From assembly GCA_027449885.1 (NCBI GenBank), contig DAIDKS010000019.1, positions 1 to 64,000 on the forward strand: a stretch of 64,000 nucleotides of DNA. Direction: 5' to 3'. How positions within the stretch are numbered: position 1 is the stretch's first letter; every line of letters begins with the position of its first letter. Made by a program: the position numbers and the translations under genes. Of the stretch, positions 1-47,421 are shown one piece after another. The notes beneath the pieces were generated by a model. That model was given only the letters and a program-made list of their open reading frames with translations, had not been told where the DNA came from and did no database searches. Source of the DNA: Acidimicrobiaceae bacterium. GTDB lineage: Bacteria; Actinomycetota; Acidimicrobiia; Acidimicrobiales; RAAP-2.

Positions 1-564
1 GTCGGCAACCCGCGCTGCTCGAAGATCTGCTGCATGTACTCGATCAAGCAGAACCAGCTGATCATGGGGACCCTGCCCCTCGCCGACGTGACGATGCACT
101 ACATCGACATCCGCGCGGCGGGCAAGCGCTACGAGGAGTTCTACCAGCAGTCGCGCGACATGGGCGCCCAGTACATCAAGGGCCGGGTCGCCTCGATCAC
201 CGAGACGCCCGAGCGCAACCTGGTGGTGCGCTACGAGGACATCGAGCACGGCGGCGCGATCACCGAGGCCGAGTACGACCTCGTCGTCCTCGCCGTCGGC
301 GTGATGCCCAACCCGGCCGCGGCCCACCTCTTCCCGGACCACGTCCTCGAGCTCGACGAGGCGGCCTTCGTCCTCGAGCCCCACGGCGACCTGCAGCCGG
401 GTCGTACCAACATCCCGGGCGTCTACGTCGCGGGGGCGGCCTCCGGGCCGAAGGACATCGTGGACTCGATCGCCCACGCCGGGGCCGCGGTCGCGGGCGT
501 GGCGGCGTACCTCGAGGCGCACCACGCCGTCGCGGTGCCGGTGCTGGAGGAGGTGGGACGATGA
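1..564 (+). CDS. HdrA/QmoA-like FAD-dependent oxidoreductase, C-terminal part (5' truncated by window edge)
   Basis: Open from base 1 in frame 1; NPRCSKICCMYSIKQ Cys motif and VLAVGVMPN / GVYVAGAASGPKDIVDSIAHAGAA typical of HdrA-family flavoproteins; ends without a C-terminal ferredoxin domain, as in QmoA. Confidence 0.85.
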   Translation, partial: VGNPRCSKICCMYSIKQNQLIMGTLPLADVTMHYIDIRAAGKRYEEFYQQSRDMGAQYIKGRVASITETPERNLVVRYEDIEHGGAITEAEYDLVVLAVGVMPNPAAAHLFPDHVLELDEAAFVLEPHGDLQPGRTNIPGVYVAGAASGPKDIVDSIAHAGAAVAGVAAYLEAHHAVAVPVLEEVGR

Positions 565-2276
565 CCGAGCGTCGCATCGGCGTCTTCATCTGCCACTGCG
601 GTGGCAACATCTCGGACTACGTCGACGTCGCCGCCGTGCGCGACGCCGTCGCCAACCTGCCCGGGGTCGCCTACGCCGAGACGGCGATGTTCGCCTGCTC
701 GGACGGGACCCAGCAGGAGATGGTCCAGCGCATCGAGGAGGAGGGGCTCGACGGACTCGTCGTCGCCTCCTGCTCCCCGAAGCTCCACCTCACGACCTTC
801 CGCGGCGTCTCGCGGCGCGCCGGGCTCAACCCCTTCCAGTACACGCAGGTGAACATCCGCGAGCAGTGCTCGTGGGCCCACACCGACGACCGGGCCGCCG
901 CCACCGAGAAGGCGACCGGCCTCGTGCGCGGGGCGATCGCCCGCACCGCCGAGAGCGACGCACTGGTGCCGCGCTCGGTCGACACGACGGCCGCGTCGCT
1001 GGTGGTGGGCGGCGGGGTGACGGGTCTGCGGGCCGCCATCGGCCTCGCCGACCTCGGCCTCGACGTCCACCTCGTCGAGCGCGGCGAGGAGCTGGGGGGC
1101 GAGGTCGCCCGCCTCGGGCGGACCTTCCCCGACGAGCACTACGGGCGCTCGATGGTCGACGAGCTGGTCGCCGAGATCGGCGAGCGGTCCCGCGTCACCG
1201 TCCACACCTCGACCGAGCTCGTCGCGAAGTCGGGCAGCTTCGGGAACTACGACGTGACGCTCGCCTCGGCCGACGGGACGAGCACCACCGCCCGGGTGGG
1301 CTCGATCGTCGTGGCGACCGGGGCCGCGTCCTACGAGCCGTCGCCGGGGGAGTTCGGCTTCGGGCTCACCGGCGTCGTCACCCTGGAGGAGTTCACCCGG
1401 GACCTCGAGAGCCGCCACGGCCGGCTCCACTTCCGCGGACGCCCGGTGCGCACGGTCGCCTACGTCTACTGCGTGGGGAGCCGCCAGGCGGACGGGAACG
1501 AGTACTGCTCGAAGTACTGCTGCTCGGCCGCGGTGCACGCCTCGGTGGAGGCGGCCGACCTCGACCCCCGGGTGCGCCAGTACCACCTCTACCGCGACGT
1601 GCGGACCTACGGGCGCTTCGAGCTGAGCTACGAGGAGTCCCGCCGACGCGGGTCGACCTACCTGCGCTACCCCGACGACGACCCGCCCCGGGTCGTCCCG
1701 ACCGAGGACGGACGGCTGCGCGTGACGGTGACCGACCTGCTCACGGAGTCGACCGAGCTCGCCATCGAGGCCGACGTGGTCGTCCTCGTCACCGGGCTCG
1801 TCCCGCGCAACAACGCCGAGCTCACCTCGCTGCTGCACCTGCCGGTCGGCAGCGACGGCTTCTACAACGAGATCCACCCCAAGTTGCGGCCGGTCGAGAC
1901 GGTGGTCGACGGCGTCCTCATCGCCGGGACCTGCCAGTCGCCCAAGACGATCGGCGAGAGCGTGGCCTCGGGGATGGCGGCCGTCACCCAGAGTGGCGCG
2001 ATGCTCATGCGCGGGGTCGCCGAGCTCGACCCCCAGGTCGCCGTCGTCGACCCCGACGCCTGCACCTGGTGCGGCGCGTGCGCGGCGGTCTGCCCCTACG
2101 AGGCGATCTCGCGCCAGGAGCTCTCCGGACGTCCGGTCGCCGTCGTCGACCCGACGGGCTGCAAGGGGTGCGGCGGGTGCGTCTCGTACTGCGAGAGCGA
2201 CGCCATCGACCTGCTCGGCAACACCGACGCCCAGGTCCGGGCGCTCATCGAGAGCATGGTGGAGGTACCGGCATGA
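561..2276 (+). CDS. HdrA/QmoB-like FAD and iron-sulfur heterodisulfide-reductase-type subunit
   Basis: RIGVFICHCGGNISDYVDV N-terminus, VVGGGVTGLRAAI Rossmann motif, EYCSKYCCSAAVHAS, two C-terminal 4Fe-4S motifs (CTWCGACAAVCP, CKGCGGCVSYCE); 4-bp overlap with upstream gene. Confidence 0.9.
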   Translation: MTERRIGVFICHCGGNISDYVDVAAVRDAVANLPGVAYAETAMFACSDGTQQEMVQRIEEEGLDGLVVASCSPKLHLTTFRGVSRRAGLNPFQYTQVNIREQCSWAHTDDRAAATEKATGLVRGAIARTAESDALVPRSVDTTAASLVVGGGVTGLRAAIGLADLGLDVHLVERGEELGGEVARLGRTFPDEHYGRSMVDELVAEIGERSRVTVHTSTELVAKSGSFGNYDVTLASADGTSTTARVGSIVVATGAASYEPSPGEFGFGLTGVVTLEEFTRDLESRHGRLHFRGRPVRTVAYVYCVGSRQADGNEYCSKYCCSAAVHASVEAADLDPRVRQYHLYRDVRTYGRFELSYEESRRRGSTYLRYPDDDPPRVVPTEDGRLRVTVTDLLTESTELAIEADVVVLVTGLVPRNNAELTSLLHLPVGSDGFYNEIHPKLRPVETVVDGVLIAGTCQSPKTIGESVASGMAAVTQSGAMLMRGVAELDPQVAVVDPDACTWCGACAAVCPYEAISRQELSGRPVAVVDPTGCKGCGGCVSYCESDAIDLLGNTDAQVRALIESMVEVPA

Positions 2277-2512
2277 CGGCCCTGCGCGACACCCGCGAGA
2301 TCATCCGCGACGAGCCCCTGATGCACCGACCGATCCTCGAGGCCCTCGCCGCGGGGCCGCGGACCATCCCCGAGATCGCGGCGACCCTGGGGCGCCCCGC
2401 CCACGAGGTCGTCTACTGGGTGATGGGCATGCGCCGCTACGGGTTCGTCGTCGAGAGCCCCGAGGCCGACGACGAGGGGTTCTTCCACTACGGACGAAAG
2501 GACGCGTCATGA
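2273..2512 (+). CDS. Small (79 aa) winged-helix-like protein inside the Hdr/Qmo operon
   Basis: ATG overlaps upstream TGA (ATGA) and its TGA overlaps the next ATG; LEALAAGPRTIPEIAATLGRPAHEVVYWVMGMRRYGFVVE resembles a wHTH. Confidence 0.7.
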   Translation: MTALRDTREIIRDEPLMHRPILEALAAGPRTIPEIAATLGRPAHEVVYWVMGMRRYGFVVESPEADDEGFFHYGRKDAS

Positions 2513-3687
2513 CGACCCTGGCCCCCCGCGTGGTCGACCCCCACCTGCTCGCCGAGCTCCAGCGCCTCGGTGCCCCCGACGTGAGCGCCTGCGTGAGTTG
2601 CGGCAACTGCACGGCCGTCTGCCCCCTCGCCGACAACGACGGGACCTTCCCGCGGCGCCTGGTGCGCTACGGCGTGGTCGGGCTGCGCGACGAGCTGCTC
2701 TCGTCGAAGGAGCTCTGGACGTGCTACCACTGCGCGGCCTGCTCGGAGAGCTGCCCGATGGAGGCCGACCCGGGCGCCTACATGGCGGCCGCGCGGCGCT
2801 ACGCGATCACCCGCTACGACCCGACGGGCGTCGCCCGACTCCTCGCGACGCGGCCCCTCGCCTCCCTCGGGGTCCTCGCGACGCTGGCGGCCCTCTTCGC
2901 CGCCCTCCTCACCCTCGATCACGGGACCGCCCCGACCGACCGGCTCGACCTCTTCCGCTTCGTGCCCGACGCGACGATCCACTGGACGGGCATCGCCGTG
3001 ATGGTCGTCGTCGTGCTCGTCGCCCTCGGCGGTCTCGTCTCGATGATCCGGGGCGTCGCCCGCCGCGAGGGGCTCGGCGCGCGCCACCTCCTCGCCGGTC
3101 GAGCCGGCTGGGCCCACGGGTGGCGGGCCGCGTGGGACGCGGCGATCGTCGAGTCGCTCGGCCAGCGTCGCTACCGGGAGGACTGCACGACGGGAACGCC
3201 CGAGCCCTGGTACCGGCGGCGATGGATCGCCCACGCCCTCACGATGTGGGGGTTCCTCGGCCTGCTCGCCGCGACGGTGCTCGACTACGGCCTGGCGCTC
3301 CTCCACGTGCGCGCCACCGGCACGCCCGAGCCGGTGTGGTACCCGGTGCGCCTGCTCGGCACGGTCGCCGGGCTGGCGCTCCTCGTCGGCGTGACGACGC
3401 TCCTCGTGAACCGCGCCCGGCGCGTGACCACCTCGGTCGAGCACTCCGAGCCCGGCGACTGGCTCCTGCTCGGGATGCTGTGGCTGGTCGGGGCGAGCGG
3501 GCTCGCCACCGAGGTCGCCCTCTACGTCGGCGGGGGACCGGCCTGGGGCTACGGGGTCTTCCTCGCTCACGTGGCGTTGGCGCTCGAGCTGCTGGTGCTG
3601 CTGCCGGTGATGAAGTTCGCCCACGTCCTCTACCGCCCGGTCGCACTCTTCTTCCACTCGCTGGTGCGCGCGACGCCGGGCTCGTGA
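2509..3687 (+). CDS. qmoC: QmoC-like fusion: HdrC-type iron-sulfur domain plus membrane cytochrome b-like domain
   Basis: CVSCGNCTAVCP and CYHCAACSESCP CCG-type ferredoxin motifs followed by about six hydrophobic helices with His residues (HWTG, HALTMWG, HVALALE, KFAHVLYRP). Confidence 0.8.
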   Translation: MTTLAPRVVDPHLLAELQRLGAPDVSACVSCGNCTAVCPLADNDGTFPRRLVRYGVVGLRDELLSSKELWTCYHCAACSESCPMEADPGAYMAAARRYAITRYDPTGVARLLATRPLASLGVLATLAALFAALLTLDHGTAPTDRLDLFRFVPDATIHWTGIAVMVVVVLVALGGLVSMIRGVARREGLGARHLLAGRAGWAHGWRAAWDAAIVESLGQRRYREDCTTGTPEPWYRRRWIAHALTMWGFLGLLAATVLDYGLALLHVRATGTPEPVWYPVRLLGTVAGLALLVGVTTLLVNRARRVTTSVEHSEPGDWLLLGMLWLVGASGLATEVALYVGGGPAWGYGVFLAHVALALELLVLLPVMKFAHVLYRPVALFFHSLVRATPGS

Positions 3688-3714: not shown

Positions 3715-3720
3715 TACGGT
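3715..3720 (+). promoter_or_regulatory. TACGGT -10-like box, 7 nt before GTG 3728
   Basis: TANNNT with leaderless spacing. Confidence 0.5.
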
Positions 3721-3727
3721 GGGCCGC

Positions 3728-4894
3728 GTGAGCGCCGAGGGCGAGGATCCGACGACGGACCCCGAGTCGGCCGACGCCGGGACGCGGCGCGAGCGCCTCT
3801 TCGCCTCGGCCCGCACCGCCCGGGTGCCGCTCGCCTCGATCCTCGCGACGGTCGGCATCATCGTCGGCGTCTACGGGCTCGGCCAGGCCCTCTTCCGGCT
3901 GAAGGGCATGCTCCTGACGCTCGTCGTCGGCAGCTTCGTGGCGGTCCTGCTCAACCCGCCCGTACGGTGGCTCCAGCACCACGGACTGCGTCGACGGGGC
4001 TACGCGGTGAGCGTGGTGATGGTCGTCGCGGCGATCGCCTTCGCGGGCCTCGCCGTCGCCTTCGGCTACCCGCTGGTCAACGGGCTCACCAACCTGGCGA
4101 ACTCCCTGCCCGGCTACATCCACCAGGCCCAGACGGGCCACGGCTGGGTCGGGCACCTCATCCAGCGCTACCACGTCCAGACGTGGCTCTCCCACAACGC
4201 GGCGAAGCTCACCAACCTCGCCCAGGGACTCTCGAAGCCCGCGCTCGCCCTGGGCAAGGGGGCCGTCTCGACGACCTTCACGTTGGTCACGATGTTCTTC
4301 TACGTCATCCTCGTGCTGGTCGAGGCCCCGAAGCTCCACCAGGGCTTCATGGCGCTCGTCGCCGCCCGCCACCGCCCGGCGGTCGAGCGGTTCGGCCGCG
4401 CGGTCGCGCGGGCCTCCTTCGGCTACATGATGGGGGGACTCCTCACCTCCTTCATCGGGGCGGTCATCGTCTTCGTCACCCTGGCCGCCCTGGGGGTCCC
4501 CTACCCGCTGCTCTTCTCCCTCTGGGTCCTCCTCGTCGACTTCCTGCCCCAGATCGGCGGGGCGCTCGCGGGGGTGCCCGTCGTGCTGATGGCCGTCATC
4601 CACTCGCCCTCGTCCGGCCTCGTCACCCTGGTGGTCTTCCTCGCCTACACCCTCATCCAGAACCACGTGCTGAACCCGATCGTGATGGCGAAGACGGTCA
4701 ACGTGAACCCGTTGCTGATCTTCCTCTCGATCCTCGTGGGCGCCGAGATGGGGGCCTGGGTCGGGGGCCTCTTCGGGGGCTTCGTCGGGGTCCTCCTCGC
4801 GGTGCCCCTGGCGGCGGCGATCCACGTCGGGGTGGCCGAGATCTGGACCGCCACCCATCCCGGCGGCCCGCCCGTCGCGGAGGACTCGGCGTAG
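3728..4894 (+). CDS. AI-2E family transporter / PerM-like permease
   Basis: Multi-TM protein with LNPIVMAKTVNVNPLLIFLSILVGAEMGAWVGGLFGGFVGVLLAVPLAAAI, characteristic of the AI-2E exporter family; GTG start 7 nt after TACGGT. Confidence 0.85.
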   Translation: MSAEGEDPTTDPESADAGTRRERLFASARTARVPLASILATVGIIVGVYGLGQALFRLKGMLLTLVVGSFVAVLLNPPVRWLQHHGLRRRGYAVSVVMVVAAIAFAGLAVAFGYPLVNGLTNLANSLPGYIHQAQTGHGWVGHLIQRYHVQTWLSHNAAKLTNLAQGLSKPALALGKGAVSTTFTLVTMFFYVILVLVEAPKLHQGFMALVAARHRPAVERFGRAVARASFGYMMGGLLTSFIGAVIVFVTLAALGVPYPLLFSLWVLLVDFLPQIGGALAGVPVVLMAVIHSPSSGLVTLVVFLAYTLIQNHVLNPIVMAKTVNVNPLLIFLSILVGAEMGAWVGGLFGGFVGVLLAVPLAAAIHVGVAEIWTATHPGGPPVAEDSA

Positions 4895-4931
4895 CGGCGG
4901 GACCGGTGGGGAGATCGTAAGTCCAGACTGA

Positions 4932-4937
4932 TAAGTT
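4932..4937 (+). promoter_or_regulatory. TAAGTT -10-like box, 7 nt before GTG 4945
   Basis: TANNNT with leaderless spacing; direct repeat TAAGT around it. Confidence 0.5.
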
Positions 4938-4944
4938 AGCCGGC

Positions 4945-5379
4945 GTGCCGAGTGCGTCGCCCGACGAGGTCGCCCGCGCGGTCCAGGCGAGCGTGCGCCT
5001 GCTGACCCACCGGCTGCGCGAGGTGCCCCAGGACGGCGGCGTCTCGCTGTCGGAGGCGTCGCTGCTCGCGCGGATCGACCACCTCGGACCCCGGGACGCG
5101 GCGACCCTCGCCCGCCTCGAGGGGATCAGCGCCCAGTCGGTCGGCGCGACGGTCGCGGCCCTCGCGGCGCGCGGGCTGGTGCGCCGGCGCCCCGATCCCG
5201 AGGACGGACGGCGGCGCGTCGTCGAGCTCACGCCGTCCGGCCGGGCGGCCCTGCGGCGCCGGCGCACCCGTCGCGCGGCCCAGCTCGCGTCCGCGCTCGC
5301 CGAGGGGTTCAGCGAGGGGGAGCGGCGCCAGCTGCTCGCCGCGGTGCCCCTGATCGAGCGCCTCGCGGAGCGGCTGTGA
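4945..5379 (+). CDS. MarR family transcriptional regulator
   Basis: wHTH LARLEGISAQSVGATVAALAARGLVRRRPDPEDGRRRVVELTPSGRAAL. Confidence 0.9.
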   Translation: MPSASPDEVARAVQASVRLLTHRLREVPQDGGVSLSEASLLARIDHLGPRDAATLARLEGISAQSVGATVAALAARGLVRRRPDPEDGRRRVVELTPSGRAALRRRRTRRAAQLASALAEGFSEGERRQLLAAVPLIERLAERL

Positions 5380-7025
5380 GCGACGCGGCGGTCGTCGACG
5401 ACCGCTACCGCTGGGTGGCGCTCGCCAACACGACGGCCGCCGTCTTCATGTCGGCCCTCGACGGCTCGATCGTCCTCATCGCCCTGCCGCCGATCTTCCG
5501 GGGCATCCACCTCGACCCCCTGGCCCCGGGCTCGATCGGGTACCTGCTGTGGATGATCATGGGCTACCGGCTCGTCCAGGCCGTGCTCGTCGTGAGCGTG
5601 GGGCGCCTCGGCGACATGTACGGACGGGTGAAGATCTACAACGCGGGCTTCGTCGTCTTCACCCTGGCGTCGATCCTCCTCTCGTTCGACCCCTTCACCC
5701 GCGGCGGCGGCGCGACCTGGCTGATCGCCTGGCGCGTCCTGCAGGCCGTCGGCGGCTCGATGCTGATGGCCAACTCGGCGGCCATCCTCACCGACGCCTT
5801 CCCGGCGTCGCGGCGGGGCTTCGCCCTCGGGATCAACCAGGTGGCCGCGCTCGCGGGCCAGTTCGTCGGGCTCGTCGCCGGGGGGCTGCTCGCCAGCCTC
5901 GACTGGCGCGCCGTCTTCTGGATCAACGTCCCGATCGGCCTCTTCGGGACGGTCTGGGCCTACCGCACGCTGCGCGAGACGGGGGACCGCAAGCCCGGTC
6001 GGATCGACGTCGCGGGCAACGTCCTCTTCGCGCTCGGGCTCGGGGCCCTGCTGCTCGGGGTGACCGAGGGCGTCCAGCCCTACCACGGCCACGCGATGGG
6101 CTGGACCAACCCGGCCGTCCTCGTCGAGCTGGTGGGCGGGATGCTCGCCCTCGTCGCCTTCGTCGTCGTCGAGCGTCGTACGCCCGACCCGATGTTCGAC
6201 CTGCGCCTCTTCGCCATCCGCTCCTTCAGCGCGGGCAACGCCGCGGGCCTCGCCGTCTCGCTGGTGCGCGGGGGGCTCCAGTTCATCCTCGTCATCTGGC
6301 TCCAGGGGATCTGGCTGCCCCTGCACGGGTACCACTTCAGTCAGACGCCCCTCTGGTCGGGCGTCTTCCTCCTGCCGATGACGCTCGGCATGCTCCTCGC
6401 CGGGCCCGTCTCGGGCTACCTCTCGGACCGTTTCGGGTCGCGGCGCCTCGCCACCTCCGGCCTCGCCGTCTTCGGGGCGAGCCTGGTGGGACTGCTCCTG
6501 CTGCCGGTCGACTTCTCCTACACGCCCTTCGCCCTGCTCATCGTGGCGAACGGCGTCGGCGGGGGGATGTTCGCCGCGCCCAACACCTCGTCCATCATGG
6601 GGGCGGTGCCGGCGAACCAGCGCGGCGAGGCCTCCGGGATGCGCGCCACCTTCCTCAACTCGGGCACCGCGCTCTCCATCGGCGTCTTCTTCTCGATCAT
6701 GATCGCCGGGCTGGCGCGCCACCTGCCGCGGGCGCTCGTCTCGGGACTCACCCGTCACGGCGTGGCCCCGGCCGCCGCGGCCCACGTGGCCGCGCTGCCG
6801 CCGGTCGCGTCGCTCTTCGCCACGCTGCTCGGGGTGAACCCCGTCGCCCACCTCCTCGGCGCCGCGCACGCCGGGGTCTCGGAGCTCGTCACGAGCCCGG
6901 CCTTCTTCGCGCGCCTGCTCGTCGCCCCCTTCGGGGACGGCCTGAGCCCGGTGCTGTGGGTGGCGATCGGCCTCACGGCGCTCGCCGCGCTGGCGTCGGC
7001 GCTGCGCGAGCCCGACGGCCGCTAG
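5376..7025 (+). CDS. DHA2-type MFS transporter (EmrB/QacA-like)
   Basis: ALDGSIVLIALPPI, GRLGDMYGRVKIYN, about 14 predicted TM helices; overlaps the MarR stop by 4 bp. Confidence 0.9.
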   Translation: MSDAAVVDDRYRWVALANTTAAVFMSALDGSIVLIALPPIFRGIHLDPLAPGSIGYLLWMIMGYRLVQAVLVVSVGRLGDMYGRVKIYNAGFVVFTLASILLSFDPFTRGGGATWLIAWRVLQAVGGSMLMANSAAILTDAFPASRRGFALGINQVAALAGQFVGLVAGGLLASLDWRAVFWINVPIGLFGTVWAYRTLRETGDRKPGRIDVAGNVLFALGLGALLLGVTEGVQPYHGHAMGWTNPAVLVELVGGMLALVAFVVVERRTPDPMFDLRLFAIRSFSAGNAAGLAVSLVRGGLQFILVIWLQGIWLPLHGYHFSQTPLWSGVFLLPMTLGMLLAGPVSGYLSDRFGSRRLATSGLAVFGASLVGLLLLPVDFSYTPFALLIVANGVGGGMFAAPNTSSIMGAVPANQRGEASGMRATFLNSGTALSIGVFFSIMIAGLARHLPRALVSGLTRHGVAPAAAAHVAALPPVASLFATLLGVNPVAHLLGAAHAGVSELVTSPAFFARLLVAPFGDGLSPVLWVAIGLTALAALASALREPDGR

Positions 7026-7029
7026 TCCG

Positions 7030-8016
7030 TCACTGCTCGACGGTCACCGGGGTGCCGAGGGGGGTGTAGGGCCACAGGGCCCCGGCCTCGACGAAGGGCA
7101 TCTCCACGCAGCCGAGGCTCTGCGGCCAGCCGTAGGTGGAGCGGATGAAGCCGTGGAGGGCGTCACCGCCGTTGAAGTAGGAGGTCCAGGGGATCCCGGT
7201 GTCGTGGTAGGGCTTGCCGTTGGGCAGGATGCCCGACATGGTCGTGACCTTGTAGCGCAAGTAGACGAGGAAGGTGCCGTTCTCGGTGGGCGAGGCGGTG
7301 ATGCCCGTGTTCACGAGGGTCGTCATCGACATCACGCCGTTGCGGTAGAGCCAGAGGCGCTCGGGCTGGGTCTGGCTCACGACGACCCAGTTGTAGGTCT
7401 CGTTCGAGAACTGGTGCTTGATGCCCGCGGTGACGAGGGCGACCCAGGTCGGCGTGTCCATGCCGCCCGTCACCGGCAGGTTGTGCTGGGCCTGGAAGCG
7501 CATGACGGCCCCGCGGAAGAGCGGCGTGATGCCCCCGACCTGCCACTCGCTCTTGAGCGACGCCGGGAGGTGGGCGAAGCGCCACGCGTAGTGGCCCTTC
7601 TGCGGGATCACGTAGCTGACGGCGGGCGCCCGACGCGTCACGGGCGTTCGCGTCGTGGTCGTGGTCGTCGAGGTCGAGGTCGAGGTGGAGGTCGAGGTGG
7701 ACGTCGAGGTGGACGTCGACGTCGAGGTGGAGGTGGAGGTGGTCGGCGGGGCCGTCGTCGTGGTGGTGCTCGTCGAGGTCGTCGTGGTGGTGGGCACGGG
7801 TCGCGCGGGGGCGGTGGCCGCCACGAAGGCGACGGGCAGGTAGCGCAGGTAGGCGAAGATCTGGTCCGCGAGGGCCACGCTGTAGACCACGCGGTTGGGG
7901 TTGATCGCCGTCGTCGTCCGCTTCCCCTGCGCGAGGGCCGGGGAGGCCGCGAGGGTCGGCAGGGCGGCGACCACGGCGACCGCGGCTAGAAGTCCTCGTC
8001 CACGGGTCGTTCGCAC
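7030..8016 (-). CDS. Secreted L,D-transpeptidase (YkuD) with Thr/Ser-repeat linker and peptidoglycan-binding-like segment
   Basis: Signal peptide; HGFIRSTYGWPQSLGCVEM catalytic Cys motif; MRFQAQHNLPVTGGMDTPTWVAL PGB-like; TSTSTSTS linker. Confidence 0.85.
   Translation of the reverse strand: MRTTRGRGLLAAVAVVAALPTLAASPALAQGKRTTTAINPNRVVYSVALADQIFAYLRYLPVAFVAATAPARPVPTTTTTSTSTTTTTAPPTTSTSTSTSTSTSTSTSTSTSTSTSTTTTTTRTPVTRRAPAVSYVIPQKGHYAWRFAHLPASLKSEWQVGGITPLFRGAVMRFQAQHNLPVTGGMDTPTWVALVTAGIKHQFSNETYNWVVVSQTQPERLWLYRNGVMSMTTLVNTGITASPTENGTFLVYLRYKVTTMSGILPNGKPYHDTGIPWTSYFNGGDALHGFIRSTYGWPQSLGCVEMPFVEAGALWPYTPLGTPVTVEQ
7655..7790 (-). repeat. Low-complexity hexanucleotide (GTCGAG/GTGGAG) array encoding the (TS)n linker
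   Basis: Repeated gtcgaggtcgaggtggaggtcgag pattern in the + strand sequence. Confidence 0.85.
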
Positions 8017-8022
8017 AGGTAA

Positions 8023-8028
8023 ACCCTA
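8023..8028 (-). promoter_or_regulatory. TAGGGT -10-like box (minus strand), 6 nt before GTG 8016
   Basis: Minus-strand gaTAGGGTttacctGTG. Confidence 0.5.
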
Positions 8029-8113
8029 TCGAGAGGTGGCGAACGACGGAACGCCACCCCGACGATTCCTGCGGCCGGGTCCGGGCCCGGGGAGCGGGTA
8101 CTGTTCGTCGGCA

Positions 8114-9256
8114 ATGAGGGGTACGCGTCACGTCGGGGTGGGAGTGGCGGTCGCCGTCGCCCTCACCCTCGTCCCGTTGGCCGGCGCCGTCCTCGACGGC
8201 CGGGCGACGGCGGGCGGGGCCTCGGGTCCGACCACCACGATCGCCGGCACGACGACCACCACGACCGGCCCGACCACCACGATCGCCGGCACGACGACCA
8301 CCACGGTCGCCGGCACGACCACGACGACCGCCCCGGGTGAGACGACGTCGACCACGACGCCGTCCTCGACGACGAGCACCCTGCCGCCGACGACGACCAC
8401 GACGATCCCGCCCCTCACCATCTCGTGGCCGACCGCGGTGAGCGCGGCGATCTACGTCCCCGACCTCTCGCTCGTCGCCTCCTCGCCCCAGCAGCCGCGC
8501 GTCCCGATCGCCAGCATCACGAAGATGATGACCACCTGGGTCGTCCTGCACCGTCTGCCCCTCGCTCGCGGGGCGACCGGGCCCTGCCACGTGGTGACCC
8601 CGCACGACCTCGCCATCTTCCACCACGACCTCGCGACCGACCAGTCGAACGCCGCGGTCGCGGTGGGCGAGCGTCTCTGCGAGTCGACGCTGCTGCGCGG
8701 GCTGCTCGTCCACTCGGCCGGGGACTTCGCGGAGATCCTGGTCGAGATGACGGGGCTCAACGACGCGCAATTCGTCGCCCTCATGAACCGCGACGCCGCG
8801 GCGCTCGGGCTGCGCTCGACCCACTACGTGGACGTCACGGGCATCGGGCCGGGCGACCGCTCGACCGCGCTCGACCAGGCCCACCTGGCCGACATCCTGA
8901 TGTCGGGGGAGCCGGTCGTCGCGCCGATCGTCACGCTGCCGTGGGTCCGCCTGCCGGTCGCGGGGATCGTCTCCTCCTACACCCCCTACGTTGGGCAGGG
9001 GGGCGTCGTCGGCGTGAAGTCGGGCTACACGAACGTCGCCGGCGGGTGCGACGTCATGGCCGTCAACTTCGTGGTCGGGACCCTCTCGTATCGCGCGTAC
9101 GTCGTGGTGCTCGGCGTCGTCGGGCCGAACGCGATCGTTCGCTCCGGCACCCTGGCCCTCGGGATCGCCCGGCAGGTCCGCCTCGGGGTCCGCGTCGCGC
9201 GCACCACCGCGGGCTCGCACCTCGTCTGGACCGGCAGCCCCGCCTACCTCCGCTGA
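8114..9256 (+). CDS. D-alanyl-D-alanine carboxypeptidase (peptidase S11) with Thr-rich linker
   Basis: PIASITKMMTTWV (SxxK), HSAGDFAEILVEMTGLND, VGVKSGYTNVAGGC (K-S/T-G); signal peptide; Thr repeats. Confidence 0.88.
   Translation: MRGTRHVGVGVAVAVALTLVPLAGAVLDGRATAGGASGPTTTIAGTTTTTTGPTTTIAGTTTTTVAGTTTTTAPGETTSTTTPSSTTSTLPPTTTTTIPPLTISWPTAVSAAIYVPDLSLVASSPQQPRVPIASITKMMTTWVVLHRLPLARGATGPCHVVTPHDLAIFHHDLATDQSNAAVAVGERLCESTLLRGLLVHSAGDFAEILVEMTGLNDAQFVALMNRDAAALGLRSTHYVDVTGIGPGDRSTALDQAHLADILMSGEPVVAPIVTLPWVRLPVAGIVSSYTPYVGQGGVVGVKSGYTNVAGGCDVMAVNFVVGTLSYRAYVVVLGVVGPNAIVRSGTLALGIARQVRLGVRVARTTAGSHLVWTGSPAYLR
8228..8305 (+). repeat. 42-bp-period tandem repeat (36-bp identical core twice) encoding a Thr-rich linker
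   Basis: ccgaccaccacgatcgccggcacgacgaccaccacg at 8228-8263 and again at 8270-8305. Confidence 0.9.
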
Positions 9257-9303
9257 CGCGAGCCTCGCGGGCGCGACCGGGCCGGGTGCTACCGTCGGGC
9301 CCC

Positions 9304-11913
9304 GTGGGTCGGGGGAGTGACGGAGGACGACGAGGGGGGTGGCGGCGCCACCTCAACGCCGCTCTCGCCCTGGTCACGAGTGGTCTCGTCGTCGCGGCCG
9401 CCCTCGTGGGGTCCGTGCCGACCGTGCCGCCGCTCGGCGCGGCCTTCGACCCCCTCACCGGGGTGTGGCAGATGACGGCGGGCGCGTCCGTCGCTCGCTC
9501 GATGACGCTCACGGCGGGCGTGGGCCACGACGTCACCGTCTCCTTCGACGCGGGGGGAGTCCCCACGATCACCGCGGCCACCGACGCCGACGCGATGTAC
9601 GCCGAGGGCTACGTGACGGCTCGTTACCGACTCCTCGAGATGGACCTCGAGCGCCGTCTCGGCGAGGGAACGCTGTCGGCCGTCCTCGGCTCGAGCGCCC
9701 TCGCCTCCGACGAGCTCCAGCTGAGCCTCGGGCTGACGCGCACGGCGCAGGCGGAGTGGGACTCGCTCGGTCCCTCGAGTCCGCAGCGCCAGCTGCTCGT
9801 CGCCTACTCGAAGGGCGTCAACCTGGCGATGAGCCAGATGGAGGCGAGCCACCAGCTGCCCGCGGCGATGACGCTGCTCGACTACCGGCCGGCTCCCTGG
9901 ACCCCGGTCGACACGCTCGTCGTCCAGGGGGACCTCACCGAGGAGCTTGACTACACGACCTCTCCGGCCGACATGGCGCTCCTCGAGCGCCACCTCGGCT
10001 CGGCGCGCACGGCCGCGTGGTTCCCCGTGACGCCGACCACCCCGCAGGCCCCCTACGACCCCGGCCCCTACGTCGCGGCCCCGCTCGTCCCGATCCACGG
10101 GGTCATCCCCGGCACGACGCCGACGCCGGGCGTCGCCGTCCCGCCGGCACCCGGGCGCTCGAGCGTCCCCTCGGCCGCCGTCGGGTCCCCTCCGCGCTCG
10201 GGCGCGCAGCGCGCCGAGGCCGCCTCGCTCATGGGGTGGATCGGTCGGCTCACCACGACCGTGCGCCACTACGGGGCCTCCAACAACTGGGTCGTCGCGC
10301 CGTCGCGTAGCGCGAACGGTCAGGCCCTCCTGGCGAACGACCCCCACCTCCCCCAGACCCTGCCGAGCGTCTGGTACGAAGTGGCGATCGACACCCCGGA
10401 CCTGCGCCTCGCGGGCGTCGAGGCGCCCGGACTGCCCGGGATCCTCCTCGGGCGCAACGACCGCGTGGCGTGGGGCTTCACCGACACCCAGAACCAGGCG
10501 ACCCTGCTCTACCGCGAGACCCTGAGCGCGACCAACCCCTCCTACTACCGCTGGCGGGGGCGGTGGCACGCGCTGCGCACCGTGCGATACCACATCGCGG
10601 TCGCGGGCGGCGCGAGCGTGGACTACCCGGTGCGGATCTCGGTCCACGGGCCGCTCGTCTCCCTGCCCGGGGGCACCTACGCCCTGTGGTGGGCGGGCGA
10701 CCTGCCCAACCAGGACCTGCTCGCCCTCGTCGGGCTGTGGCACGCGAGGGACGCCGCCCAGGTCCGCGCGGCCCTCCAGCACTGGACCGCCCCCACCCAG
10801 AACATCGCCTACGCCGACTCGGCCGGCCACGTCGGCATCATCGCGCCGGGGGTCTACCCCGAGACGGCCCACGGCGTCCCGTGGCTGCCGCTCTCGGGCA
10901 CCGGGGCGGACGACGTCGTCGGGACGATCCCGCCCCGCGCCGTTCCCCAGGTGGCGGACCCCGTCGCCGGCTACGCCGTCTCGGCGAACCAGCGACCGGT
11001 CACCGCCGCCTACCCGTACTACATCGGCACGGTCTACGACTTCTTCGACCCGGGCTACCGCGCCCTCACCATCTCGTCGCGACTGGCCGCGGCCCCGGCG
11101 GCCACGACCGCGACGATGGCCTCCATCGAGACCGACCTTCGCGACCGGTTGGCCGTCACGCTCACCGGACCCCTGGTCGCCGCGGTCCGCGCGAGCGGGG
11201 TGGCGTCGAGCGCGAGCGGACGCGCGGCCCTCGCCCTCCTCACCCACTGGGACGGGACGATGAGCGCCGCGTCGGGGGCGGCGGCCCTCTACTGGACGTG
11301 GCTCGGGGACTACGCGCGCGACGTCTTCGGTCCGTGGTGGAGGGCGACGCACGTGCCGGTCGGGCTCGACGCCAACCTGGCGATCACCCCGGCGACCGAC
11401 GCCGCCCTCGTGATGGACCTGGAGACCTGGTCGACGCGGCCAACCCGCGGGTCGGCCCTCACGCTGCCCGACGGCCACGCGCGCTCGGCCGCCACCGTGA
11501 TGGCCCAGGCCTTCACCCAGGCCGTGGCCCACCTCACCCGCCAGGAGGGGCCGCCGGTCGCCTGGCGGTGGGACCACCTCCAGAGCCGCCAGTTCGCCTC
11601 GCTGACCAACGCGCCGGCCCTCGGTTACGGGCCGCGGGGATCGGGCGGCGACGCCTTCACCCCCGACGCGGCCGACGGCTTCCCGATCGCCGGCACCGGT
11701 CCCAGCTGGCGCGAGATCATCGCCCTCGGCCCAGCGCGCCCCGGCGCGGCGCCGGCGACGAGCACCGGGGTCTACCCGGGAGGGCAGAGCGAGAACCCGC
11801 TCTCTCCCTGGTACGAGACGTGGGTGACCACGTGGTGGGACGGACGAAGCCACCCCCTGCCGAACCCGACCCGACCGGCGCGCCCGATCGCCACCTGGGA
11901 GCTGCGGCCGTGA
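9304..11913 (+). CDS. Penicillin acylase family (Ntn-hydrolase) protein, membrane anchored or secreted
   Basis: YGASNNWVVAPSRSANGQALLANDPHLPQTLPSVWYEV (Ser nucleophile motif), GRNDRVAWGFTDTQNQ, N-terminal hydrophobic segment. Confidence 0.92.
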   Translation: MGRGSDGGRRGGWRRHLNAALALVTSGLVVAAALVGSVPTVPPLGAAFDPLTGVWQMTAGASVARSMTLTAGVGHDVTVSFDAGGVPTITAATDADAMYAEGYVTARYRLLEMDLERRLGEGTLSAVLGSSALASDELQLSLGLTRTAQAEWDSLGPSSPQRQLLVAYSKGVNLAMSQMEASHQLPAAMTLLDYRPAPWTPVDTLVVQGDLTEELDYTTSPADMALLERHLGSARTAAWFPVTPTTPQAPYDPGPYVAAPLVPIHGVIPGTTPTPGVAVPPAPGRSSVPSAAVGSPPRSGAQRAEAASLMGWIGRLTTTVRHYGASNNWVVAPSRSANGQALLANDPHLPQTLPSVWYEVAIDTPDLRLAGVEAPGLPGILLGRNDRVAWGFTDTQNQATLLYRETLSATNPSYYRWRGRWHALRTVRYHIAVAGGASVDYPVRISVHGPLVSLPGGTYALWWAGDLPNQDLLALVGLWHARDAAQVRAALQHWTAPTQNIAYADSAGHVGIIAPGVYPETAHGVPWLPLSGTGADDVVGTIPPRAVPQVADPVAGYAVSANQRPVTAAYPYYIGTVYDFFDPGYRALTISSRLAAAPAATTATMASIETDLRDRLAVTLTGPLVAAVRASGVASSASGRAALALLTHWDGTMSAASGAAALYWTWLGDYARDVFGPWWRATHVPVGLDANLAITPATDAALVMDLETWSTRPTRGSALTLPDGHARSAATVMAQAFTQAVAHLTRQEGPPVAWRWDHLQSRQFASLTNAPALGYGPRGSGGDAFTPDAADGFPIAGTGPSWREIIALGPARPGAAPATSTGVYPGGQSENPLSPWYETWVTTWWDGRSHPLPNPTRPARPIATWELRP

Positions 11914-42871: not shown

Positions 42872-45449
42872 CCAGACCACGACCTCCGTCACGATCACCC
42901 TCAACGGGCGACCCGTCGCGGCCCAGCCGGGCGAGCTCCTCATCGAGGCCGCGGCCCGGGCCGGGGACTACATCCCCCGCTTCTGCTACCACCCGCGCAT
43001 GGAGCCCGTCGGCGTCTGCCGCATGTGCCTCGTCGAGGTGGAGGGACCCCGCGGAGCGACCCTGCAGCCGGCCTGCTACATCCGGGTGAACGACGGCATG
43101 GTCGTCGACACCGGCAGCGACCGCGTGAAGAAGGCCCAGGACGGCGTCCTCGAGTTCCTCCTCGCCAACCACCCGCTCGACTGCCCGGTCTGCGACAAGG
43201 GTGGCGAGTGCCCGCTCCAGGACCAGGCGCTGGCCCACGGCTCGGGCGAGACCCGCTTCATCGAGGAGAAGCGCCACTTCGAGAAGCCGATCAGCATCGG
43301 ACCGCTGGTCCTGCTCGACCGCGAGCGGTGCATCCAGTGCTCGCGCTGCACCCGCTTCGCCGCCGAGGTCGCGGGCGACGCCCAGATCGACTTCGCCGGG
43401 CGCGGCGACCTGATTGAGGTGGCCCCGTCACCCGAGCACCCGTTCGACTCGGTCTTCTCCGGCAACACCGTCCAGATCTGCCCGGTCGGGGCGCTCACGG
43501 CGAAGCCCTACCGCTTCACCGCTCGTCCGTGGGACCTCGAGCAGGTCGAGAGCACCTGCACCACCTGCGCCGTGGGGTGCCGCGTCGCGGTCCAGTCGTC
43601 GGGGAACCGCCTGACGCGGGTGCTCGGCGTCGACTCCGACCCGGTCAACCACGGTTGGCTGTGCGACAAGGGCCGCTTCACCCTCGACAGCGTCGACGGC
43701 AACGAGGAGTCGACCGACCCGCTCTCGCCGGCGACCCGGATCGCCACGCCGCTCGTCCGTCGCGACGGCTCCCTCGAGCCCGCGACCTGGGGCGAGGCCC
43801 TGGCCGAGGCCGCGCGCCTGCTCGGCGCCGCCGCGGCCACCGAGGGTGGCGTGGGCGCCATCGGCGGTGCCGCGCTGACGAACGAGGGCGCCTACGCCTG
43901 GGGCCGCCTGGTCCGCGAGGCGCTCGGCAGCGACCACCTCGACGCCCAGTACGGCGACGGACTCGACCCCGTCCTGGTCCAGGCGCTGCCGGCCGCGACG
44001 ATCGACGAGGCCGCGTCGGCCCGCGTGATCGTGAACCTCGCCGGGGACCTGCGCGAGACGCTGCCGGTCCTCTTCCTGCGCCTGCGCGCCCCGCTCGCGG
44101 CCGGCCGCGGCGCCCTCATCGAGATGGGTGCCGGGACGAGCTCGCTCGCCCCGCTCGCCCGCGTGAGCCTGCCGACCCGACCCGGTGAGGCGGACCGCGT
44201 CGCGGCCGCGCTCTGCGGTGACGCGGTCGACCACACCCTGACCCTGGGCGAGTTCGACCTCGCCGAGGCGCGCTCGCTGCTCGGCGAGGGCGAGGGCGTC
44301 GTCGTCGTGCTCGGCCGCTCGAACCTGGCCGAGGACCCCGCCGTCGTCGAGTCGGCGGCCCGGCGACTCGCTCAGCGCTTCCCGGCCGCGCGGTTCCTCG
44401 TGGGCCTGCGCCGCGCCAACGTGCGCGGTGCGCTCGACATGGGCCTCGCCCCGCGCCTCGCCCCGGGCCGTCGCCTCCGGGAGGGTGGGCGCGACGCCCT
44501 GGCGCAGCTCGCCGCCCTGCGCGAGGGTCGCCAGCGCGCGGTCCTCGTCCTCGGCGGCTGCCTGCTCGGCAACGTGATGGACGCCGAGGGCGCCCGCGAG
44601 GCCCTCGAGCGGGCCGACGTGGTCGTCGTGACGGGTCACGGGGGGGCCACCCTGCAGCACGCCGACGTGGTGCTGCCCGCGGCCGTCTCCTACGAGCGCT
44701 ACGGCACGGTGACCAACCTCGAGGGCCGCGTCACCGCGCTGGCGCCGAAGCTGGTGGCACCGGGCAGTGCCTGGAACGACGTGGCCATCGCCGCCGAGTT
44801 GGCTCACGCCCTCGGGCACCCGCTCGACCTCGACTCGATCGAGGCGGCGGCCCGTGAGATCGAGCGCACCACGGGCTACCCGGCGCTCTCGGTGCTGACC
44901 GACCCCCACGTCGAGGGCGTCCTCGCCGGACGGGGCGACCGCGTCGAGCGTCGTCCGCTCGACCCGATGGCCTTCCCCGGGATTCGCTCGACCGACACCG
45001 TGGGCCTGGCGAGCTTCGCCGGGGCCGTCGCCCAGCCCGACGCCCCCGGTGCGGGGCGCCTGGGCGAGCCGAGCCTGGCCGACGTGACGACGCGCCCGGT
45101 CAGCGTGCCGCCGCCCGACGCCTACGCGCTCGGGCTGGTCGTCGACCACCGTCTCTACGACCGCGGCATCGCGATGACCGGCTCGCCGGCCCTCGCCGAC
45201 CAGGTCGCTCCGGCGACACTCGGACTGGGTCGCGTGGAGCTCGACCGTCTGGGGCTCGCCGAGGGTGACACGGTCAGCGTGCGCTCCGCGCGGGGGGCCG
45301 CCGACCTGACGGTGGCGCTCGACGCCGGGCTCGTCCGGGGCGTCGCGCGCCTCGCGGCGAACTCGCGGGACGCCGCCGGTGTCGACGTCGTGCGGGCCCT
45401 GGTCGACGCCGACGCCACGATCACCCCGATCCGACTGGAGACCCGATGA
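42864..45449 (+). CDS. nuoG: NADH-quinone oxidoreductase subunit G
   Basis: FCYHPRMEPVGVCRMCLVEVEGP, HPLDCPVCDKGGECPLQDQAL, CTTCAVGCRV. Confidence 0.95.
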   Translation: MTDQTTTSVTITLNGRPVAAQPGELLIEAAARAGDYIPRFCYHPRMEPVGVCRMCLVEVEGPRGATLQPACYIRVNDGMVVDTGSDRVKKAQDGVLEFLLANHPLDCPVCDKGGECPLQDQALAHGSGETRFIEEKRHFEKPISIGPLVLLDRERCIQCSRCTRFAAEVAGDAQIDFAGRGDLIEVAPSPEHPFDSVFSGNTVQICPVGALTAKPYRFTARPWDLEQVESTCTTCAVGCRVAVQSSGNRLTRVLGVDSDPVNHGWLCDKGRFTLDSVDGNEESTDPLSPATRIATPLVRRDGSLEPATWGEALAEAARLLGAAAATEGGVGAIGGAALTNEGAYAWGRLVREALGSDHLDAQYGDGLDPVLVQALPAATIDEAASARVIVNLAGDLRETLPVLFLRLRAPLAAGRGALIEMGAGTSSLAPLARVSLPTRPGEADRVAAALCGDAVDHTLTLGEFDLAEARSLLGEGEGVVVVLGRSNLAEDPAVVESAARRLAQRFPAARFLVGLRRANVRGALDMGLAPRLAPGRRLREGGRDALAQLAALREGRQRAVLVLGGCLLGNVMDAEGAREALERADVVVVTGHGGATLQHADVVLPAAVSYERYGTVTNLEGRVTALAPKLVAPGSAWNDVAIAAELAHALGHPLDLDSIEAAAREIERTTGYPALSVLTDPHVEGVLAGRGDRVERRPLDPMAFPGIRSTDTVGLASFAGAVAQPDAPGAGRLGEPSLADVTTRPVSVPPPDAYALGLVVDHRLYDRGIAMTGSPALADQVAPATLGLGRVELDRLGLAEGDTVSVRSARGAADLTVALDAGLVRGVARLAANSRDAAGVDVVRALVDADATITPIRLETR

Positions 45450-46681
45450 CGACGTTCGCCACGGTCGACCCGCTCTTCAACCACGGCGTGACGTGGGCCG
45501 TGCTGCTCATCGTCATCATCAAGGCCGTGGTCGGCTTCGCCGCGCTGATGGGCTCGGTCACCCTCATGATCTGGTTCGAGCGCAAGGCGATCTCGGACAT
45601 GCAGAGCCGCATCGGACCCCAGCGCTGGGGACCGTTCGGGCTCCTGCAGACCCTCGCCGACGGCATCAAGCTCTTCTTCAAGGAGGACCTGATGCCGGCC
45701 GAGGCAGATCGCTTCGTCTTCAAGCTGGCCCCGTACCTCGCCCTGGTGCCGGCCCTCATCACCTTCTCGATCATCCCGATCGGCGGGACCGTCACCGTCG
45801 CGGGCCACGTCATCGACCTGCAGGTCGCCAATCCGCCGATCGGCATCCTGGTGATGCTCGCCATGTCGGGCATCTCCGTCTACGGCGTGATCCTCGCGGG
45901 CTGGTCGTCGGGCTCCAAGTATCCGCTCATGTCCTCGGTCCGCGCGAGCGCCCAGATGATCAGCTACGAGGCCGCTCTCGGCATGACGATCGTGACGGTC
46001 GTTCTGGCGACGGGCTCGCTCTCGACCCACGACATCGTCACCGCCCAGGCCCACGGGATCTGGCACTGGAACGTGATCCGGCTGGGCGTCGTCCCCTTCA
46101 TCGTCTTCGTGATGGCGATCACGGCCGAGCTCAACCGCCCCCCCTTCGACGTGGTCGAGGCCGAGAGCGAGCTGGTGGGCGGCTTCCACACCGAGTACTC
46201 CAGCCTGCGCTTCGCCCTGTTCTTCCTCGCCGAGTTCATGAACGTCATCACGATGTCGGCCATGATCGTGACGCTCTTCCTCGGTGGCCCCGCCGGCTGG
46301 GTGCCCAACATCCCGCACCTGCGCTGGGTCTTCCCGATCCTGTGGTTCCTCGCCAAGACGACCGGCTTCGCCTTCGTCTACGTGTGGTTCCGTGGAGCCC
46401 TGCCGCGCTTCCGCTACGACCAGCTGATGGACCTCGGCTGGAAGCGGCTCATTCCGCTCAGCCTCGGCTGGATGCTCATCGTCGCCGGGTTCCTCGTCAA
46501 CCGGTCCTGGGGATTCCTCATGGCCGCCCTGGTGCTCATCGCCTACATCGTGCTGACTCGGGCCTTCGAGCTCGGTGACGGACGGCGCGGCGACGTGCTG
46601 CCGACGGTCGGCGAGCGACCGCTGCCGGGTGCCGTGCTGCGCGCCTGGACGGACCGCGACTCGCGCGAGGAGGAGGAGTAA
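45446..46681 (+). CDS. nuoH: NADH-quinone oxidoreductase subunit H
   Basis: RIGPQRWGPFGLLQTLADGIKLFFKED; ELNRPPFDVVEAESELVGGFHTEYSSLRFALFFLAEF. Confidence 0.96.
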   Translation: MTTFATVDPLFNHGVTWAVLLIVIIKAVVGFAALMGSVTLMIWFERKAISDMQSRIGPQRWGPFGLLQTLADGIKLFFKEDLMPAEADRFVFKLAPYLALVPALITFSIIPIGGTVTVAGHVIDLQVANPPIGILVMLAMSGISVYGVILAGWSSGSKYPLMSSVRASAQMISYEAALGMTIVTVVLATGSLSTHDIVTAQAHGIWHWNVIRLGVVPFIVFVMAITAELNRPPFDVVEAESELVGGFHTEYSSLRFALFFLAEFMNVITMSAMIVTLFLGGPAGWVPNIPHLRWVFPILWFLAKTTGFAFVYVWFRGALPRFRYDQLMDLGWKRLIPLSLGWMLIVAGFLVNRSWGFLMAALVLIAYIVLTRAFELGDGRRGDVLPTVGERPLPGAVLRAWTDRDSREEEE

Positions 46682-47421
46682 TGGCGCGCCCGCTCGACTT
46701 CTTCGGGGGCTTCAAGCTCACCTTCCAGCACCTGACCCGTCCCCGGGTCACGGTGAGCTACCCCGAGGCCAAGCGGCCCAAGCAGCCGCGCCAGCACGGC
46801 CGCCACGTCCTCAACCGCTACGAGGACGGGATGGAGAAGTGCATCGGGTGCGAGCTGTGCGCGGGCGTCTGCCCCGTGAACTGCATCTACGTCCGCGGCC
46901 TCGACAACCCGCCCGACCACCCGGTCAGCCCGGGGGAGCGCTACGGGTACGTCTACGAGATCAACTACCTGCGCTGCATCCACTGCGACATGTGCGTGGA
47001 GGCGTGCCCGACGCAGGCGATCACCGAGTCGAAGCTCTTCGAGTTCTCCTTCACCAACCGCGCCGACGCCATCTACACCAAGGCCGAGCTGCTGGTCGAC
47101 GACCACGGCGAGCCCCAGCGCCTGCCCTGGGAGGACTGGCGCGACGGGGAGTCGGCCATGACCGGCGGCTGGATGCGCGCCACGTCACCGGCCGGTGACG
47201 CCGACTTCGAGGGCGTCGTCCAGTGGACCGGCGACCTCGGGGTGGGCGTGCGGGCCGCCGAGGGCGGACAGTCGGGTCAGCGCGACGACGAGGCGACCGG
47301 CTCCAAGCCCCTGCGCTACGCCTTCGTGAACCACCTGAACCCGGCCGACGTCCCCGCGGAGCTGCGCGGTCGCCGCGCCCGCCGGGTCGCCGCGCCGCGT
47401 CGCCAGAAGGGGAGCAAATGA
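46681..47421 (+). CDS. nuoI: NADH-quinone oxidoreductase subunit I
   Basis: [16 protein letters not shown] and [16 protein letters not shown]. Confidence 0.96.

What the first reader, a model, noticed from the sequence alone, without database searches (positions are those of the whole stretch)
1..3687. Qmo/Hdr-like membrane electron-transfer operon in an apparently actinobacterial genome
Sequence shows two consecutive HdrA-type flavoproteins (the first without a C-terminal ferredoxin, the second with two 4Fe-4S motifs) followed by an HdrC-type ferredoxin fused to a cytochrome b-like membrane domain. That arrangement matches QmoABC, which links the quinone pool to APS reductase in sulfate reducers, or runs in reverse in some sulfur oxidisers. 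The second subunit (571 aa) stops after the ferredoxin and appears to lack the MvhD-type extension I expect for QmoB, so this may be a distinct variant. Inference: a membrane complex coupling quinones to sulfur or other low-potential redox chemistry.
Basis: partly seen in the sequence, partly recalled or inferred. Interest (0 to 1): 0.72.

Follow-up and report, generated by a model that had tools for sequence, protein, structure and literature searches.

The report
Sulfur-carrier-linked Qmo-like membrane redox operon
This actinobacterium carries one copy of a gene set, found in the same order in at least eleven bacterial phyla, that appears to pass electrons between protein-bound sulfur, the membrane quinone pool and (here) NAD(P)H; it looks like, but is not, the well-known sulfate-reduction complex QmoABC.

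Summary
The window starts at a contig end. The missing part is on contig C2, which shares 141 identical bases with the window, and a close relative (L018) runs unbroken across the join. The full operon is tusA - mvhD - dsrE2 - hdrA with a GltD/NfnB-like NAD(P)H domain inserted (909 aa) - hdrA - wHTH - qmoC. The MvhD "missing" from QmoB is a separate upstream gene.

It is not canonical QmoABC. Canonical loci fetched as controls are aprBA-qmoABC with QmoB-MvhD fused. All three subunits fall in separate clades from those. No AprA, ATP-sulfurylase or DsrA was found in the 84%-complete genome. Yet the module recurs: TusA and MvhD lie upstream in 58 of 58 testable loci, and the wHTH gene sits between qmoB and qmoC in 75 of 77, across 11 phyla. 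I found no description of it in the literature held.

Best reading: a menaquinone-coupled (here also NAD(P)H-coupled) oxidoreductase acting on sulfane sulfur carried by TusA/DsrE2. Direction and chemistry are inferred.

The parts
1..564 (+). C-terminal part (187 aa) of the first HdrA-type flavoprotein ('QmoA'); the other ~720 aa, including the inserted GltD domain, lie on contig C2 (L009, - strand), outside the window
   Evidence: NCBIfam HdrA2 162 bits; exact 141-base overlap with contig C2 and contiguity in L018 5327-8056
561..2276 (+). second HdrA-type flavoprotein ('QmoB-like', 571 aa): HdrA N-domain with C11/C13/C46/C71, FAD domain, CxGSR..CSxxCC cluster motif, two C-terminal 4Fe-4S motifs, no MvhD extension
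   Evidence: NCBIfam HdrA2 457 bits; PDB HdrA 9sfi_A E=3e-105; invariant Cys over 79 loci
2273..2512 (+). small winged-helix protein (79 aa, 'p79'), translationally coupled between qmoB-like and qmoC-like genes
   Evidence: present between B and C in 75 of 77 loci; AlphaFold2 pLDDT 93 winged helix; Foldseek hits ArsR/MarR-type winged helices; no Pfam or NCBIfam hit
2509..3687 (+). QmoC-like protein (392 aa): HdrC-type double 4Fe-4S domain fused to a membrane domain with four invariant His (two b haems predicted)
   Evidence: NF038018 qmoC 187.7 bits, below its cut-off of 300; 8 invariant Cys and 4 His >=99% over 80 loci, hydrophobic segments

Best explanation
The operon encodes a membrane-bound, quinone-coupled sulfane-sulfur (persulfide) oxidoreductase built on a Qmo-like plan. 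TusA and DsrE2 carry sulfur as a persulfide on one invariant cysteine each. The persulfide/thiol couple on these carriers exchanges electrons with the two HdrA-type flavoproteins, with stand-alone MvhD as a [2Fe-2S] link. Electrons pass through the 4Fe-4S clusters to the QmoC-like subunit, whose two b haems exchange them with menaquinone. In this organism and the other GltD-bearing versions, the inserted Nfn/GltD-like domain adds an NAD(P)H port, so electrons can be shared among NAD(P)H, quinone and carrier-bound sulfur. Most likely net role: reduction of carrier-bound sulfane sulfur to sulfide/thiol, or its reverse, to balance redox state and dispose of or use polysulfide-type sulfur. Shown by sequence: gene content and order, cofactor motifs, conservation, separateness from canonical Qmo. 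Inferred: the substrate, the direction, the electron path and the role of the winged-helix protein.
For: TusA and MvhD upstream in 58 of 58 loci with enough sequence, DsrE2 in 44 of 58, winged-helix gene between B and C in 75 of 77, 11 phyla. Invariant carrier cysteines: TusA C46 70/70, DsrE2 C122 59/59. QmoC: 8 invariant Cys and 4 His. Full ferredoxin and HdrA cluster motifs in A and B. The insert's nearest solved relatives are the A subunits of NfnABC and StnABC and NfnL, with a conserved GGGN(V/T)A(M/I)D...R nucleotide motif. Rhodanese, DsrE-like and SQR-like genes recur nearby. The operon's TusA is the only TusA found in the genome.
Against: No catalytic subunit with a known disulfide or persulfide site (HdrB CCG type) is in the operon, and no member has been assayed. 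Direction cannot be read from sequence: some actinobacterial neighbourhoods carry an SQR-like gene, which favours a sulfide-oxidising setting. The host has two haem-copper oxidases, so it is no obvious anaerobic sulfur respirer. TusA and DsrE2 could be served by the complex for a biosynthetic rather than an energy purpose. DsrE2 was missing from 14 of the 58 loci.
Confidence: 0.58

Rival explanations
1. Sulfur oxidation rather than reduction: persulfide sulfur delivered by DsrE2/TusA (for example from sulfide:quinone oxidoreductase) is oxidised at the HdrA flavoproteins. Electrons go to menaquinone through QmoC and partly uphill to NAD(P)+ through the inserted GltD domain.
For: SQR-like gene next to the operon in L037, L038, L042, L043 and an SQR-like gene elsewhere in the own genome; aerobic terminal oxidases present. 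Habitat of the relatives was not verified.
Against: The HdrB-type noncubane-cluster subunits and lipoate-binding proteins that define the known Hdr-like sulfur-oxidising system are absent from the operon; no dsrA, aprA or sat found for later steps.
Confidence: 0.22
2. Canonical QmoABC: electron link between quinones and APS reductase, forward or reverse.
For: Same overall plan (two HdrA flavoproteins plus HdrC-cytochrome b); best named NCBIfam match of the third gene is qmoC.
Against: 187.7 bits against a cut-off of 300. A gap separates canonical (373-525 bits) from module (163-219 bits) QmoC in three searches. Different clade for C and for A/B. QmoB lacks the fused MvhD that canonical QmoB has. 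No aprA or sat in the genome searched. One Desulfarculaceae genome, G041, has both types.
Confidence: 0.05
3. The complex is a generic NAD(P)H/quinone/ferredoxin flavin-bifurcating oxidoreductase. TusA and DsrE2 serve another purpose (sulfur supply for Fe-S assembly of the complex, or tRNA thiolation) and are only co-transcribed.
For: The only TusA found in this genome is the one in the operon, so it may have housekeeping duties; HdrA-type flavoproteins can bifurcate (established for methanogen HdrABC); QmoA keeps the HdrA-like R-A-(F/A)-G-K motif with K in 75 of 75.
Against: TusA linkage in 58 of 58 loci over 11 phyla, plus DsrE2 and recurring rhodanese, DsrE and SQR genes, is hard to explain by housekeeping; only 2 of the 25 genomes of this genus searched, own included, carry the fused QmoA.
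Confidence: 0.15

Closest known systems
Canonical QmoABC (type I, aprBA-linked) of sulfate reducers and Chlorobi
   Same: Two tandem HdrA-type flavoproteins followed by an HdrC-type ferredoxin fused to a cytochrome-b-like membrane domain; MvhD-type [2Fe-2S] component present
   Different: MvhD separate, not fused to QmoB; TusA, DsrE2 and a winged-helix gene in the operon; GltD insert in QmoA; no aprBA or sat; separate clades for A, B and C
'Type II' Qmo proteins (PMC10504309)
   Different: That paper's main text does not describe the TusA/DsrE2/MvhD/winged-helix linkage or the GltD insert in the passages read. Whether the Ammonifex or Vulcanisaeta sequences fall in this clade could not be tested
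Type III HdrA (GltD inserted) of ANME-1 and Bathyarchaeota (PMC12054007)
   Same: GltD domain inserted between the two clusters of the HdrA internal ferredoxin
   Different: Bacterial; partnered with QmoC, TusA and DsrE2 rather than HdrBC or Mvh; nucleotide motif GxGxxA, where the paper reports GxGxxG
Hdr-like sulfur-oxidising system (sHdr: HdrC1B1AhypHdrC2B2 with LbpA, TusA, DsrE)
   Same: HdrA-type flavoprotein with TusA and DsrE carriers
   Different: No HdrB, no lipoate-binding protein; has two HdrA and a membrane QmoC
NfnABC / StnABC bifurcating transhydrogenases
   Same: Nearest solved relatives of the inserted domain
   Different: Only the GltD-like domain is shared

Membership tests
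Canonical QmoABC | QmoC scores above the curated NF038018 cut-off (300 bits) | tested here: not met
   187.7 bits; canonical loci 373-525, module loci 163-219, nothing between
Canonical QmoABC | QmoB carries a C-terminal MvhD domain | tested here: not met
   571-aa QmoB-like ends after the ferredoxin; canonical QmoB is 722-774 aa in most control loci with an MvhD match at the C-terminus in most; here mvhD is a separate gene
Canonical QmoABC | Linked to aprBA/sat, or these present in the genome | tested here: not met
   aprA below cut-off (29.8 bits, a weak partial flavoprotein match), no ATP-sulfurylase; genome 84% complete, so absence is provisional
Canonical QmoABC | Groups with canonical QmoC, QmoA and QmoB in trees | tested here: not met
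   canonical QmoC one clade at 100*; module A 98*, module B 100*, canonical A and B nearer each other than to either
Canonical QmoABC | Di-haem b membrane domain with double 4Fe-4S domain | tested here: met
   8 invariant Cys, 4 invariant His
Type II Qmo (PMC10504309) | Clades with the Ammonifex degensii and Vulcanisaeta moutnovskia proteins | not testable with these tools
Type III HdrA (GltD-inserted) | GltD domain inserted in the HdrA internal ferredoxin region | tested here: met
   Fer4_20 + Pyr_redox_2 at 153-536, between C106-C116 and C623-C633
Type III HdrA (GltD-inserted) | NAD-type GxGxxG motif | tested here: inconclusive
   second Rossmann motif is GGGN(V/T)A, i.e. GxGxxA, in every row; it is not certain that the paper scored the same motif
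sHdr sulfur-oxidising system | HdrB (CCG) and lipoate-binding protein genes in the cluster | tested here: not met
   seven-gene content; the only CCG protein found in the genome is a 675-aa Fe-S reductase on contig C25, not in the operon
FlxABCD-HdrABC | HdrB plus FlxABCD | tested here: not met
   no HdrB-type gene in the operon; Flx genes not searched for one by one

The most novel reading that the evidence does not exclude
A previously undescribed, widespread bacterial energy-conserving complex in which carrier-protein-bound sulfane sulfur (TusA/DsrE2 persulfide), NAD(P)H and menaquinone meet on one HdrA-derived flavin machine. The GltD-bearing forms would be three-way (bifurcating or confurcating) sulfur/NAD(P)H/quinone oxidoreductases, assembled independently of canonical QmoABC.
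Probability: 0.3. Interest if true: 0.82.

Novelty: new variant of a known kind. Interest (0 to 1): 0.6.

Why it matters
Genomes with these genes will be read as having "qmoABC" and hence APS-based sulfate reduction or sulfur oxidation, which here would be wrong. If the linkage means what it seems to, many heterotrophs not known to me for sulfur metabolism (Actinotalea, Cellulomonas, Prolixibacter, Granulicella-like MAGs) have a membrane enzyme for carrier-bound sulfur. That would connect sulfur trafficking proteins, whose redox partners are mostly unknown outside Dsr and sHdr, to respiration, and it is testable in existing isolates.

Tried and rejected
Tested and rejected: canonical QmoABC (scores, trees, gene linkage). 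HdrABC/sHdr (no HdrB in the operon; the only CCG protein is elsewhere). The idea that 571 aa means a truncated QmoB (mvhD is a separate gene; the proteins of close relatives end at about the same place). A chance or mis-assembled join of C2 and C19 (141 exact bases and contiguity in L018).

Unresolved: one or more origins of the GltD insert. QmoA-core trees reject one clade weakly (p-AU 0.026), while the inserted GltD domains themselves group apart from seven freestanding ones, so one gain with losses or domain transfer stays possible. The 909-aa AlphaFold model is only fair (pLDDT 76, pTM 0.59; Fe-S regions under 50), so no electron path is read from it.

Led nowhere: literature phrases for "Qmo-like", "QmoC-like" or MvhD with TusA.
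Full report
What is there. Window 1-3687 holds four genes on the + strand with 4-base overlaps: 1-564, the C-terminus of an HdrA-type flavoprotein; 561-2276, a 571-aa HdrA-type flavoprotein (HdrA2 model 457 bits; PDB HdrA E=3e-105); 2273-2512, 79 aa; 2509-3687, 392 aa, qmoC model E=4e-55 but 187.7 bits against a cut-off of 300.

The start of the operon lies outside the window. The window is contig C19 from its first base. The - strand of contig C2 ends in the same 141 bases. In L018 (JAJZUS010000002.1, an Actinomycetes MAG; QmoC 98% identical; DNA about 94-95% identical) both pieces map to one unbroken stretch. The intact operon there is TusA 4076-4402, MvhD/FlpD 4403-4816, DsrE2 4826-5311, HdrA with inserted GltD 5327-8056 (909 aa), HdrA 8053-9768, 79-aa protein 9765-10004, QmoC-like 10001-11179. 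Pfam and NCBIfam confirm TusA (PF01206), FlpD/MvhD (PF02662), DsrE_2 (PF13686; NF047629 at 90 bits, below its cut-off of 210) and, in the 909-aa protein, Fer4_20 plus Pyr_redox_2 inside an HdrA frame. On C2 itself the same genes are seen, and the only TusA found in the genome is there.

The module is conserved. A scan of genome contigs with the QmoC-like protein gave 80 loci, the best of at least 294. Gene order was read by BLAST against the L018 proteins and by a small profile for the 79-aa family. Where at least 2.5 kb upstream of qmoA is held, TusA and MvhD are upstream in 58 of 58 and DsrE2 is in the locus in 44 of 58; the 79-aa gene sits between B and C in 75 of 77; the loci come from 11 named phyla. 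The sample was chosen by QmoC similarity, so this shows linkage, not a census. In 396 Actinomycetota genomes, 6 carry a module-scoring QmoC (163-198 bits) and 17 a canonical one (400-468 bits). Of 25 genomes of this genus searched, own included, two carry the full fused QmoA. The module is therefore patchy. Other recurring neighbours are rhodanese (14 loci), further DsrE-like proteins and an SQR-like flavoprotein (these named from sequence by eye, not by a model).

Cofactor motifs. Over 80 QmoC: eight invariant Cys and four His at 99-100% (H158, H242, H354, H372), with hydrophobic segments around them. QmoA: C106/109/112/116 and C623/626/629/633 flank the insert, then the HdrA cluster C715/728/732/733. 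QmoB: C11/13/46/71, C304/316/320/321 and the two C-terminal clusters. TusA C46 and DsrE2 C122 are invariant. The insert is at one site, after A(x)P(xx)A(x)I and before the second cluster, in both groups that have it. Its nearest solved relatives are NfnABC/StnABC A subunits and NfnL, and its second Rossmann motif is GGGN(V/T)A. By the criterion in PMC12054007 that would be NADP-type rather than NAD-type, but specificity was not tested and I call it NAD(P)H.

Is it QmoABC? As controls I fetched Desulfobacterota loci with QmoC above the cut-off: aprB-aprA-qmoA-qmoB-qmoC, with QmoB 722-774 aa in most and, in most, an MvhD match at its C-terminus (apr genes recognised by their characteristic N-termini, not by a model). 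Scores are bimodal, 373-525 against 163-219, in three searches. One genome (G041, Desulfarculaceae JdFR-97) has both types. In the QmoC tree the canonical proteins are one clade (100*), apart from all module proteins. In a tree of the shared HdrA core, module A (98*) and module B (100*) are separate clades, and canonical QmoA and QmoB are nearer each other than either is to the module. So the module is Qmo-like by plan and appears to have been built independently from HdrA-type parts. This fits PMC10504309, which reports at least two origins of QmoAB(C) and a type II of unknown role. No aprA above cut-off, ATP-sulfurylase or dsrA was found in the own genome, which is 84% complete.

How it most likely works. 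Two dedicated persulfide carriers, a [2Fe-2S] protein, two flavo-iron-sulfur proteins and a di-haem quinone subunit in one transcription unit point to electron exchange between carrier-bound sulfane sulfur and menaquinone, with an NAD(P)H port in the GltD forms. Carrier cysteines, clusters, haem ligands and linkage are shown by sequence; substrate, direction and path are inference. No HdrB is present, so the persulfide would have to react at a flavin or at the HdrA clusters, which is unproven. I favour reduction or redox balancing, with sulfur oxidation the main rival (SQR-like neighbours, aerobic host).

The 79-aa protein is a confident winged helix (pLDDT 93) resembling ArsR/MarR-type proteins. 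Its fixed place between two structural genes suggests a subunit or a dedicated regulator; the data do not separate these.

GltD insert. It is found in Actinomycetota, Bacillota, one Chloroflexota, half the Bacteroidota and one Myxococcota locus. QmoA-core trees need two changes and reject a single clade at p=0.026; the insert domains nevertheless group together against seven freestanding ones. Number of origins open.

Literature. Nine full-text searches of the held open-access library found no description of this linkage. Subscription papers and preprints are not held, so novelty is provisional.

Noticed in passing
window ~45446-48020: Complex I genes (nuoH-, nuoI- and nuoJ-like) on the + strand; the genome also has two haem-copper oxidase subunit I genes, so the host looks aerobic.
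   Followed up: partly
window 3719-7025: Downstream of the operon: AI-2E-type permease, MarR-type regulator and an MFS transporter, also syntenic in L018; not seen as recurring neighbours of the module elsewhere.
   Followed up: no
L011 4127-6908 (own contig C1): Fusion of two 4Fe-4S motifs with a ferredoxin-NADP-reductase-like domain, next to an SQR-like flavoprotein; a rhodanese is nearby at C1:34076.
   Followed up: no
L158 8423-9622 (G041:C8): A second module-scoring QmoC in a Desulfarculaceae genome without adjacent QmoA/B, besides one complete module and one canonical QmoC.
   Followed up: no
L147 / L178 (G060): Divergent QmoC next to an HdrA-GltD-like gene in a Desulfobacterota genome, possibly a further combination of the same parts.
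   Followed up: no
L187-L198 (Actinomycetota): 17 of 396 Actinomycetota genomes, in two unnamed families, carry canonical-scoring QmoC; whether aprBA is next to it was not checked.
   Followed up: no
L053, L055, L064 and similar; L059, L074, L076, L077: Acidobacteriota versions have an ArsR-like gene upstream of tusA, Bacteroidota versions a Crp/Fnr-like gene: possible dedicated regulators.
   Followed up: no
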